The position numbers and the translations under genes were made by a program. DNA of 64,000 bases from Phycisphaerales bacterium (GTDB taxonomy: Bacteria > Planctomycetota > Phycisphaerae > Phycisphaerales > SM1A02): positions 1 through 64,000 of the forward strand of contig SIAD01000010.1 of the NCBI GenBank assembly GCA_009691915.1, read 5' to 3'. Shown piece after piece: positions 54,849 through 61,521 of the stretch. The notes beneath the pieces are model-generated. The model was not told the DNA's origin. It did not search any database and saw only the letters and a list, made by a program, of their open reading frames with translations. How positions within the stretch are numbered: the stretch's first letter is position 1; every line of letters starts with the position of its first letter.

Positions 54849-56162
54849 ATGCACACTCCCCGATTCGCCGTGGTTTCCGTGGCGCTGCTCGCCTGCGCTT
54901 CGGGCGCATGGGGTCAGTACGGCGGTGGATACGGGCCGCCAATGCCAGCGCCCCCAGCTCCTGCACACCCGACGACCCCCGCTGCTCCCCAGTTTCCCGA
55001 GGAAGACGACGAGGACCTCGATGCTCAGCCGACAACTCCGGGCACTCCGTCAACCCCCACGCCTGGTGCGCCAGCGGGACCGTCTGCGCCAAAGGCCAAG
55101 AGCACCGAACGCTTCAACTGCTCCGCCCCGGAGAAGGGTTGGGTCGCCAAGCTCGATCAAGCCGATCGGGCGGCGATCGATGAGCGCCTTGGTTACGCCC
55201 TGCCGGCGATGTCCTCCGATCTTGACTGGGTTGGCTCGACCACCAGCGCACCAACTCTGGAGGGAAAGGTCGTCGTCATCCAGACCTTCGATGTGAACTC
55301 CGGCGGATTGGGCCCGATCGACAAGGTGGCTAGTGCACTCAAGGCCCTCGATGACGAAGCGGATCTTGTGGTGATCGGAGTGCAGGTCCCCACCAAGGTA
55401 GAGGCGTCAACCCCACGCGTCGCGAAGTCGAAGGCCAAGGCAAGCCTGTGCGTCGACACGACTGGGGCGTGGTGCGACGCGCTCGGCGCGTTCAGAAAGC
55501 CGGTCAACTTTGTCGTCGACAAGTCCGGGACCGTCCGCTTCGTGGGTCTCACCGCGAAGGGAGTCCTGTCGGCGGTCAAGGTGCTCCTGGAGGAGCCGCG
55601 CCGGCCGGAGGGTGCCGCGGATCGCCCAGCGGCAACTGTTGCGGCTGACCCCACGGCGTCATTCCCGACCTACACGGGTCCTCTGAGTGGCGCGAATGAT
55701 CTGCGCGGCAAGCCGAGTCCGGAGCTGCTCGTCGACCAGTGGATGTCGAAGGCCCCGGACACCCGTGGAAAACTCATCATCGTCGACTTCTTCTTCACAG
55801 GATGCGCCCCGTGCCGCGCCGCGATCCCGCACATGAATGAGATCGCCGACCACTACAAGAACCAGGTCGCGGTCGTCGGCGTCTCGTGGGAAACCAAGTC
55901 CACCTACGACTCCGGACTCACGCGCTACAAACTCAAGCAGAGTGACTTCCACTATGCCACCGGCCTCGACTCAAGCCGCCGCACAGTCGGAGCCTTCGGG
56001 GTGCAGAGCTATCCGAATGTCGCGGTCATCTCATCAGATGGCGTCGTGCGGTGGCAGGGGCATCCGACAGGGCTGACGCAGGCCGTGCTCGACCCAATCG
56101 TCGCCGCCAACCTGGCACTCGCCCCAACGGGCGGGAGTGGGTCGCGCGGCTGGGTGAAGTGA
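54849..56162 (+). CDS. Secreted protein with two thioredoxin-fold domains (TlpA-like)
   Basis: 437 residues. Signal peptide (MHTPRFAVVSVALLACASGAWG), then a Pro/Thr/Ala-rich linker to about residue 80, a first thioredoxin-like domain (VVVIQTFDVNSGGLG, with VPTKVE and KPVNFVVDKSGTVRF) whose active-site Cys pair is missing, and a second domain (IIVDFFFTGCAPCRAAIPHMNEI with CAPC, VVGVSWETKS, then YPNVAVISSDGVVRW). The second resembles TlpA/ResA thiol-disulfide oxidoreductases; the first looks like a peroxiredoxin-type but catalytically dead copy. Exported thiol chemistry is likely; partner unknown. Confidence 0.85.
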   Translation: MHTPRFAVVSVALLACASGAWGQYGGGYGPPMPAPPAPAHPTTPAAPQFPEEDDEDLDAQPTTPGTPSTPTPGAPAGPSAPKAKSTERFNCSAPEKGWVAKLDQADRAAIDERLGYALPAMSSDLDWVGSTTSAPTLEGKVVVIQTFDVNSGGLGPIDKVASALKALDDEADLVVIGVQVPTKVEASTPRVAKSKAKASLCVDTTGAWCDALGAFRKPVNFVVDKSGTVRFVGLTAKGVLSAVKVLLEEPRRPEGAADRPAATVAADPTASFPTYTGPLSGANDLRGKPSPELLVDQWMSKAPDTRGKLIIVDFFFTGCAPCRAAIPHMNEIADHYKNQVAVVGVSWETKSTYDSGLTRYKLKQSDFHYATGLDSSRRTVGAFGVQSYPNVAVISSDGVVRWQGHPTGLTQAVLDPIVAANLALAPTGGSGSRGWVK

Positions 56163-59733: not shown

Positions 59734-60465
59734 ATGAAACTCACTGCTCTCGTTCCTGACACTCTCGCTGGACTGACAGTTGTTGCCGCCCTCGCGGCTG
59801 GCGCCGCGCTCGATGCCTCGCAGGCCGGGGGAGTCGCGAAGGGATCTCCATATCCCCTGGCAACCTGCCCGGTTTCCGGCAAGCCGCTCGGAGAGTCCCC
59901 GACGATCCTCGTCATGGAAGACAAGGAGAATCCACTTCTTGATGGCCGCGAGATCCGTTTCTGCTGTGGGAAGTGTCCCGAACAGTTCAAGGCCGACCCA
60001 TCGAAGTTTCTTCCGGCCGTCGACGAGGCGATCATCACGCTGCAGCGGCCCGGCTATCCGCTCATGAACTGCGCGGTGATGACCGAGGATGCGCTTGCCA
60101 AGCCTGGCGAGCCGGACGCCGACAAGATCAAAGAGATCGTGGTCCACAACGAACTCGTGCGCCTGTGCTGCAAGGGGTGCGTGAAGAAGGTCAAGAACGA
60201 CCCTGCCAAGATCCTTGCGGCGATCGACGCGGCGGCGATCGCTGCACAGAGCAAGGCGTATCCGCTGGTGACCTGCCCCATCTCGGGGGAGGCGCTCGAC
60301 GACGATGCAGCACGGATCGTCATCTCCGAGAGGCTCGTGAAGCTCTGCTGCATGGGCTGCGCAGAGAAGGCGCGCAAGGATCCGCTCAAGGTCCTCGCAA
60401 AGCTCGATGCCGCAACCGCCGCCAAAGCCGCACCGGCACCGGCCGCGCCATCCGCCACCAAGTGA
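59734..60465 (+). CDS. Exported three-fold YHS/TRASH-like Cys-cluster protein
   Basis: 243 residues with a signal peptide ([21 protein letters not shown]). The mature protein is three copies of a 68-residue unit: [13 protein letters not shown]...[20 protein letters not shown]...[19 protein letters not shown]...LCCMGC, giving Cys45/77/78/81, Cys113/145/146/149 and Cys181/205/206/209. Each unit ends in DPxKxLxxID. CPxSG plus CCxxC is a metal-binding pattern of YHS/TRASH type. A short Ala/Pro/Lys tail ends it. Copper or other soft-metal binding in the periplasm is the likely role by analogy. Divergent from ahcY, convergent with the ArsR-methyltransferase gene. Confidence 0.75.
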
Positions 60466-60480
60466 TCTCCAACGCCGCGT

Positions 60481-61521
60481 TCAGCGGCGCGAAAAGAGCG
60501 CACAGAAGAGACCGGGGCCACGCACATCAACGACCGGTGTGATCCGCCGCCACCTCCTCAAGACGACCGGAGCGGCACGCGCCCACACCTTGGCGCTCTC
60601 TTGCGAGAACCCGAGGTGTCGGTGTCCCATGGAAGTTCGGTAGGAAGTCCGTTCGTGCTCGACCATGTCGATCACCAGAATCCTCCCCCCGACCTTGACG
60701 CACCGGGCAATCTCCGTCATCGCACGCGACGGATCTTCGATGTGATGGAAGAGCAGCATGGCGATCGCCGCGTCGAACTCCGCGTCGCGCGCGGGGAGCG
60801 CGAGGATGTCACCGCGCCGGACTTCCGTGTTGGTCGCTTTGGAGAGACGCCGCCGTGCGGCGTCGATCATCGCCGCTTCGCGGTCGATGGCGACGACCCG
60901 GCCGACCGACGGCGCGAGCCGCTGAGCAACCTCGCCAGTGCCGCACCCGATGTCTGCGACGACCCAATCGGGATCGAGCAACGCAAGCAGCCCGTCGATT
61001 CCTCCCGCCTCGCCGAAGAGCTCACGGCGGATCGCGTCCCACTCGCCGCCGACTCTCCCGAAATACCCGAGTGAATCCATCGGTCGATCGGCAATGACGG
61101 CAGCCAGCCGTGCATCGTCCTCGGCTGACTGCGCACTCCCTGTGAGCGCATGCTTTGAGAGCTCCCACAGCGACTGCATTTCCTTGGAGACCGCAGTGAG
61201 GTCGGCGCGATACAGGCTGGTGGTCCCCTCGAGGCGCCGCGTCACAAACCCCCGCTCGAAGAGAGGCTTGATGAGCCGACTGGCCGTCGATTGGGGAACC
61301 TGAAGAGCGCGCGCGAGTTCCCCGACGGCAAGTTCGTTCGCCTCGAGTGCGCGGAGCACTCTGAGGCGTGCGGCATCACTGAACATTGCGAGCATCTGGG
61401 TCCAGCGACGCGCGGATGTCGACGCAGAAGTAGTCGAGGAAGGCACGGCCGCCGCGCGCGCGGGTGTGAGTACCGCACGGCGGGATGCCGACTCCCCTCG
61501 CAGTCGCGCCCGCCTCGCCAT
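60481..61521 (-). CDS. ArsR-family regulator fused to SAM methyltransferase domain
   Basis: 346 residues. After a Ser/Ala/Arg-rich stretch of about 42, an ArsR-type winged helix (LAMFSDAARLRVLRALEANEL, AVGELARALQVPQSTASRLIKPLFERGFV in part) is followed by a class I methyltransferase domain: VVADIGCGTGEVAQRLA (SAM loop), VVAIDREAAMIDAARRR and FDAAIAMLLFHHIEDP. No metal-binding Cys pair is seen in the wing helix, so a metal sensor is unlikely. Such fusions include regulators of the SAM cycle that sense S-adenosylhomocysteine (SahR type). It follows the TPR lipoprotein gene by 4 bases; ahcY lies 850 bases away. Confidence 0.85.
   Translation of the reverse strand: MARRARLRGESASRRAVLTPARAAAVPSSTTSASTSARRWTQMLAMFSDAARLRVLRALEANELAVGELARALQVPQSTASRLIKPLFERGFVTRRLEGTTSLYRADLTAVSKEMQSLWELSKHALTGSAQSAEDDARLAAVIADRPMDSLGYFGRVGGEWDAIRRELFGEAGGIDGLLALLDPDWVVADIGCGTGEVAQRLAPSVGRVVAIDREAAMIDAARRRLSKATNTEVRRGDILALPARDAEFDAAIAMLLFHHIEDPSRAMTEIARCVKVGGRILVIDMVEHERTSYRTSMGHRHLGFSQESAKVWARAAPVVLRRWRRITPVVDVRGPGLFCALFSRR

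What the first reader, a model, noticed from the sequence alone, without database searches (positions are those of the whole stretch)
59734..60465. Three-fold CPxSG...CCxxC protein of the cell exterior
Three 68-residue units, each with one Cys in YPLxxC and three in CCxxC, form a tidy internal triplication with a signal peptide. It may bind three metal ions outside the cytoplasm. The unit is like YHS/TRASH but with a CC pair not typical of either.
Basis: partly seen in the sequence, partly recalled or inferred. Interest (0 to 1): 0.55.

Follow-up and report, generated by a model that had tools for sequence, protein, structure and literature searches.

The report
Exported triple-TRASH protein, likely copper handling
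A planctomycete gene encodes a probably exported protein made of three copies of a known metal-binding finger with rearranged cysteines; its relatives often sit beside copper/silver efflux pump genes, so it probably holds or hands over copper outside the cytoplasm.

Summary
ORF 59734-60465 (243 aa) has an N-terminal hydrophobic segment and three C...CCxxC units. Units are 68, 68 and about 57 residues, not all 68. Pairwise similarity is 14.5 to 19.9 SD above shuffles, and all 12 Cys are invariant in 13 aligned relatives. The unit is a TRASH/YHS treble-clef finger: Pfam TRASH_HVO_1752_C is over its cut-off; fold neighbours are YHS domains of toluene/phenol hydroxylases and ribosomal L24e, at weak scores. 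The triplication is old: units group by position across planctomycetes. The CC pair is not an oddity. In a 154-unit non-redundant census, units with Cys first and no second Cys carry CC in 99 of 100 cases; D-x2-C units in 7 of 32. The CC form sits mostly behind hydrophobic segments, the D form mostly not. Outside the window's genus, 12 of 16 genomes with both a relative and a CusA/CzcA pump encode them within 10 kb (0.3 expected). The window's genome lacks such a pump; the gene lies between ahcY and an ArsR-methyltransferase gene. Best reading: a periplasmic Cu(I) buffer or chaperone. Metal binding and identity are untested. A new variant of a known kind.

The parts
59734..60465 (+). Gene for the exported triple-TRASH protein (243 aa)
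   Evidence: relatives in 51 of 61 related genomes, the window's own included
59734..59826 (+). Probable signal peptide (about residues 1-31)
   Evidence: hydropathy 2.31 over 12 residues; pLDDT under 50 for residues 1-31
59848..60054 (+). Unit 1 (residues 39-107): C45, C77, C78, C81
   Evidence: Pfam TRASH_HVO_1752_C best stretch 68-87
60052..60258 (+). Unit 2 (residues 107-175): C113, C145, C146, C149
60256..60426 (+). Unit 3 (residues 175-231): C181, C205, C206, C209
   Evidence: unit model pLDDT 92
60427..60462 (+). Ala/Pro-rich C-terminal tail
   Evidence: sequence; lower pLDDT
58119..59632 (-). Context: ahcY (S-adenosylhomocysteine hydrolase), divergent; its start is approximate
   Evidence: Pfam AdoHcyase 3.5e-138; divergent ahcY 46-152 nt away in 9 of 15 family loci (L057-L070, L072)
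60481..61521 (-). Context: ArsR-type HTH fused to a methyltransferase domain, convergent
   Evidence: Pfam HTH_5/HTH_20 plus Methyltransf_11

Best explanation
This is an exported protein of three TRASH-type treble-clef fingers. Each finger offers a four-thiol site (C...CCxxC), and the protein most likely binds soft metal, above all Cu(I), at about one site per unit. It would act as a periplasmic copper buffer or chaperone. In many relatives it is encoded directly behind the CusA pump and probably loads copper onto CusB/CusA, the job CusF does in E. coli (recalled). In the window's lineage, which has no CusA-type pump over the cut-off, it would only hold or pass on the copper that a CopA-like ATPase exports, or supply cuproenzymes such as the CuA-type oxidase subunit. 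Shown: old triplication, N-terminal hydrophobic segment, family, invariance of all 12 Cys, gene linkage in relatives. Inferred: metal binding, metal identity, stoichiometry, hand-over.
For: All 12 Cys are invariant in 13 of 13 aligned proteins. TRASH_HVO_1752_C scores 29.5 bits against a cut-off of 27, and 13 of 13 members match YHS and TRASH profiles at E<=0.01, best 5.2e-19. AF2 gives pLDDT 85.6 for the whole and 92.0 for unit 3, as a hairpin plus two helices. Fold neighbours are YHS domains of toluene/phenol hydroxylases and L24e, with NosL at rank 48. CusA lies on the same strand within -85 to 169 nt in 17 of 66 loci with a homolog; overlaps of 4 nt suggest one transcript. 12 of 16 genomes outside the genus with both genes have them within 10 kb, 0.30 expected. 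Neighbours classified as RND pump, CusB-type adaptor, OEP, heavy-metal P-type ATPase and multicopper oxidase. The same unit type sits at the C-terminus of a CusB adaptor (L075, L076) and in DUF2231 membrane proteins. CusF is found in only 10 of 61 genomes and 0 of 19 in the genus. 9 of 53 family proteins have a His-rich C-terminus. Window genome: Cu-ATPase 492 bits (cut-off 397), COX2.
Against: No metal was measured. The window's genome has no over-cut-off CusA/CzcA and no HMBD, and the gene sits beside ahcY, so its copper link is borrowed from relatives. The protein scores below the YHS gathering cut-off (19.1 against 30.3). Fold hits are individually weak (best Foldseek E 0.27, best Z 5.5). 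Four thiols per exported unit would also suit disulfides.
Confidence: 0.62

Rival explanations
1. The fingers are structural: each unit holds Zn(II) or is held by two disulfides, and the protein is an exported scaffold or binding protein whose cysteines only stabilise it.
For: Treble clefs are often structural zinc sites (PMC4999995, abstract and passages). Each unit has four Cys, an even number, and this form is enriched behind hydrophobic segments, as disulfide proteins would be. Three relatives (L086, L089, L093) lack all four Cys of unit 1 yet keep the unit, which fits a disulfide pair as well as a metal site.
Against: Linkage to CusA pumps, adaptors and copper ATPases. Positions P3 and P4 are shared with D-type units, and the L24e cysteines bind Cd in a crystal (PMC4626032, passages). 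A scaffold role does not explain the copper linkage.
Confidence: 0.2
2. It is a periplasmic sponge for other soft metals (Ag, Hg, Cd, Zn) or for several metals, not mainly copper.
For: CusA/CzcA-family pumps also move Ag, Zn, Cd and Co (recalled). TRASH domains are proposed for heavy metals in general (PMC8261052 passage). NosL/MerB are said to descend from TRASH-like fingers (PMC4999995 passages).
Against: Neighbours include P-type ATPases with a YHS unit and multicopper oxidases, which point to copper.
Confidence: 0.13
3. In the window's lineage it belongs to the methionine/SAM cycle with ahcY and the ArsR-methyltransferase protein and has left metal handling.
For: Divergent ahcY within 152 nt in 9 of 15 loci, and the ArsR-methyltransferase gene close by in most of them. 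SahR, an ArsR-family regulator, controls ahcY in Proteobacteria (PMC4239095, passages).
Against: All 12 Cys are retained, and the N-terminal segment predicts export from the compartment of the SAM cycle. The synteny may be simple neighbourhood inheritance, since flanking genes are conserved as well.
Confidence: 0.05

Closest known systems
TRASH domain (Pfam PF24273, PF08394; L24e; archaeal CopR)
   Same: Fold class, P1/P3/P4 cysteines, metal theme; PF24273 over its cut-off
   Different: Three tandem copies in one exported protein; long first gap (31 residues in units 1 and 2); no HTH or sensor part
YHS domain (PF04945), as in Cu-ATPases and toluene/phenol hydroxylases
   Same: Hairpin plus helix fold; C-x3-C core followed by a D/N-P motif; 13 of 13 members match at E<=0.01
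   Different: First position Cys in place of Asp, second Cys missing, extra Cys next to the third; the window protein alone is below the gathering score
CusF periplasmic copper chaperone
   Same: Small exported protein encoded with CusCBA in relatives; proposed role
   Different: No PF11604 match in the Pfam scan of the window protein; CusF is a small beta barrel with a Met/His/Trp site (recalled)
NosL copper chaperone
   Same: Listed among Foldseek matches (7og7, rank 48, E 4.0); said to descend from duplicated TRASH-like fingers (PMC4999995 passages)
   Different: Two fused fingers whose zinc core is lost, against three four-Cys units

Membership tests
TRASH superfamily | Match to a curated TRASH profile | tested here: met
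   PF24273 29.5 bits, cut-off 27; 13 of 13 members at E<=0.01
TRASH superfamily | Cys ... C-x3-C core | tested here: met
   C45...C77-x3-C81 and likewise in units 2 and 3; invariant in 13 proteins
TRASH superfamily | Treble-clef fold | tested here: inconclusive
   L24e and YHS domains are top fold neighbours, but E>0.2 and Z<6
TRASH superfamily | Binds a transition metal through the cysteines | not testable with these tools
   needs protein
YHS (PF04945) in the strict sense | Whole-protein score over the gathering cut-off | tested here: not met
   19.1 against 30.3 bits for the window protein; relatives reach 5.2e-19
YHS (PF04945) in the strict sense | D-x2-C first pair | tested here: not met
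   C-x2-S/M/S in the three units; D-type and C-type are separate classes in the census
CusF | PF11604 domain | tested here: not met
   absent from the Pfam hits of the window protein up to E 1; no PF11604 match in the window genome
CusCBA-linked accessory protein | Encoded with CusA | tested here: inconclusive
   immediately adjacent in 17 of 66 loci and within the stretch in 26 of 66; not so at the window, whose genome has no over-cut-off CusA

The most novel reading that the evidence does not exclude
The TRASH/YHS superfamily has two mutually exclusive metal sites: D-x2-C...C-x3-C for the cytosol and C-x2-x...CC-x2-C for the cell exterior, in which the second ligand has moved next to the third. 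Planctomycetes stacked three or more of the exterior form into a dedicated Cu(I) carrier that stands in for CusF at CusCBA pumps, and put single copies of the same site on CusB and on a membrane partner, so that one site type forms a hand-over chain.
Probability: 0.35. Interest if true: 0.62.

Novelty: new variant of a known kind. Interest (0 to 1): 0.42.

Why it matters
CusCBA-type pumps in E. coli work with a periplasmic carrier, CusF (recalled). CusF was found in only 10 of 61 genomes examined here, so most of these planctomycetes have no known one. A triple-TRASH protein encoded right behind CusA is a concrete candidate. The near-strict swap between two cysteine layouts, with a matching tilt between exported and non-exported context, gives a simple testable rule for reading the many proteins now labelled only YHS or hypothetical.

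Tried and rejected
Selenocysteine: one search lists one in-frame TGA in several relatives. In the four of these that I fetched whole (L067, L073, L074, L095) the gene is uninterrupted and the stop is the normal terminal one inside an overhanging match (coordinates). A fifth case, a TAA in G036, was not fetched.

Metalloregulator reading of the ArsR neighbour: the fused methyltransferase domain and the ahcY neighbour make a SAM/SAH role more likely than metal sensing (inference); not followed further.

Anti-phage defence: no PADLOC match. PDB by sequence: none for the single protein; with the profile only phenol hydroxylase at E 0.53. The window holds no Rfam hit other than one tRNA, so no SAH riboswitch reached threshold at ahcY.

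Flaws in my own steps: one search translated the wrong strand for minus-strand loci and was superseded. In one search the gene caller missed many homologs and was superseded. The 'DUF2231' column is meaningless because that reference fell into the merged cluster c0. The unit tree is the quick tree in place of an unfinished careful one. In the census 40 of the YHS-derived places were picked by me, most because they were partial profile hits, which enriches the C-type; the exclusivity of the two layouts does not depend on that, the proportions do. The seed pattern fixed P1 to C or D and P2 to a few residues, and left the residue after P3 free. The export test uses crude starts and truncated loci. 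In one search the CusA list was copied from the part that was printed ('more matches are not listed'), so 12 of 16 may be an undercount.

Papers: PMC4626032, PMC4999995, PMC7830388, PMC4239095 and PMC8261052 were seen as abstracts in listings and as passages; others as search listings only; Ettema 2003 only as a reference entry. Searches that showed me nothing on triple-TRASH proteins or on the two layouts.

Full report
What is there. The ORF at 59734-60465 on the + strand encodes 243 residues. It has a hydrophobic N-terminus, three units with Cys at 45/77/78/81, 113/145/146/149 and 181/205/206/209, and an Ala/Pro-rich tail. The units are homologous beyond chance: u1-u2 20/65 identical, Z 14.5; u1-u3 21/52, Z 18.7; u2-u3 26/55, Z 19.9, each against 2000 shuffles. 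The step is 68, 68 and then shorter: first Cys to CC is 32, 32 and 24 residues. Unit 2 reads CAVMT, not CPxSG.

Conservation. Relatives were found at E<=1e-4 in 51 of 61 related genomes, the window's own included, and at 26 loci of the genome collection, mostly Planctomycetota, with one Hydrogenedentota record and some records labelled only as bacterium. A profile of 13 sequences found matches in 71 of 148 genomes of the phylum at E<=1e-10, many of them partial. In the 13-sequence alignment all 12 Cys are invariant. Among 53 family proteins at E<1e-20, after dropping two duplicate loci, 39 have three CCxxC motifs, 10 have four, 3 have two and 1 has five. All 55 before dropping duplicates have a hydrophobic segment ahead of the first unit. 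In a tree of 138 units, unit positions cluster: 10 label changes against 65.6 in shuffles, with 64 columns and many weak forks. So the triplication is older than these lineages and the units mostly kept their places. Three relatives (L086 and L093 from one genome, L089 from another family) lack all four Cys of unit 1 while keeping the unit, as expected if the four act as one site or as two paired bonds.

Family. Pfam TRASH_HVO_1752_C scores 29.5 bits against a cut-off of 27; YHS scores 19.1 against 30.3. All 13 aligned members match both at E<=0.01, with YHS down to 5.2e-19. AF2 models are confident (whole protein pLDDT 85.6, pTM 0.77; unit 3 alone 92.0) and show a hairpin plus two helices per unit. 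The nearest solved folds are the YHS domains of toluene and phenol hydroxylases and ribosomal L24e, all with weak single scores (Foldseek E 0.27 or worse; VIA Z 5.5 or less). The consistency of the lists supports the TRASH/YHS treble clef; the scores alone would not. I did not see the atomic coordinates, so the site geometry is unmeasured.

The CC pair. I searched all frames of the fetched loci with a profile of such units and tabulated the Cys columns: P1 (C or D), P2 (three residues on), P3, the next residue, and P4. Of 402 units, 330 of 331 with P1=Cys and P2 not Cys (P3 and P4 both Cys) carry the CC pair; of 41 with P1=Asp and P2=Cys, 8 do. At 60% non-redundancy (154 units) the figures are 99 of 100 and 7 of 32; in loci found with the Pfam YHS profile alone (57 units) they are 17 of 17 and 7 of 27. 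So there are two layouts: D-x2-C...C-x3-C and C-x2-x...CC-x2-C. In the second, one thiol has apparently moved from P2 to the position after P3. Known chemistry for the first: in L24e four Cys bind Cd, and in YHS domains Asp often replaces the first Cys (PMC4626032, passages). That the moved thiol is a ligand is my inference.

Where the layouts occur. In the YHS-derived non-redundant sample, 11 of 17 C-type frames have a strongly hydrophobic stretch ahead of the unit, against 5 of 26 D-type frames (Fisher p 0.004; all units 46 of 65 against 5 of 31, p 6e-7, crude starts). Inside the gene clusters studied here, the proteins of the P-type ATPase cluster carry the D form (one hit, in L089, starts after the D position), and the CusB tails, the proteins beside the gene and a PSCyt1 protein carry the C form.

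Gene neighbourhood. A homolog was called in 66 of 67 loci. The cluster that contains CusA (ACR_tran; TIGR00914 1065 bits for L073) is present in 26 of 66, and on the same strand within -85 to 169 nt in 17 of 66; several overlaps are exactly 4 nt. Eight of these 17 are the more distant proteins with an extra N-terminal part, mostly from Pirellulaceae. Outside the window's genus, 12 of 16 genomes with both a long relative and an over-cut-off CusA/CzcA have them within 10 kb, 0.30 expected from genome size. Other neighbours are OEP, CusB-type adaptors, heavy-metal P-type ATPases and multicopper oxidases. CusF (PF11604) is found in only 10 of 61 genomes and in none of 19 in the genus.

The window itself is different. 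Its genome has no CusA/CzcA over the cut-off, no HMBD and no CusF. It has a copper-type ATPase (TIGR01511 492 bits, cut-off 397) beside an RND pump of another class, two COX2 matches and a weak SCO1 match. The gene lies between divergent ahcY and a convergent ArsR-methyltransferase gene. Divergent ahcY within 46-152 nt is found in 9 of 15 loci of the family (L057-L070 and L072). The ArsR protein resembles a SAM-cycle regulator more than a metal sensor (inference; SahR in PMC4239095, passages).

Mechanism. Most likely the protein is exported and binds Cu(I) in each four-thiol unit. In relatives it would feed CusB/CusA; in this lineage it would buffer copper exported by the ATPase or supply cuproenzymes. 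Steps shown: repeat, N-terminal hydrophobic segment, family, Cys invariance, linkage in relatives. Steps inferred: metal binding and identity, one metal per unit, transfer. The main rival is a structural zinc or disulfide role, which the even Cys number and the exported context also fit.

Verdict. But the CC pair is the mark of a widespread sub-type, not a peculiarity of this protein. It is a new variant of a known kind, of moderate interest, and mainly useful as a candidate carrier for planctomycete Cus pumps and as the lead to a two-layout rule for TRASH/YHS sites.

Noticed in passing
L073:8774-12583 and other CusA-linked loci: The linked CusA proteins are long (about 1250-1300 aa): they match TIGR00914 in two blocks, about 1-516 and 653-1040, which suggests a replaced or inserted periplasmic part.
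   Followed up: no
L088:8730-9434, L081:8663-9541, L090:8552-9499, L089:8560-9600: Proteins next to the triple-TRASH gene carry one CC-type TRASH unit; in L081, L088 and L090 it is fused to a DUF2231 membrane domain, a possible membrane partner.
   Followed up: partly
L086, L089, L093 (unit 1): All four Cys of unit 1 are missing together while the unit sequence is kept; these proteins are His-rich at both ends.
   Followed up: partly
L148 (G071:C25:6854-7555): A 315-aa planctomycete ORF with four YHS-profile matches in a row, another multi-unit form.
   Followed up: no
window 54849-56162: A 437-aa protein with a C-terminal AhpC-TSA/ResA-like thioredoxin domain; it could keep exported thiols reduced, but it lies 3.5 kb away and its position is general synteny.
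   Followed up: no
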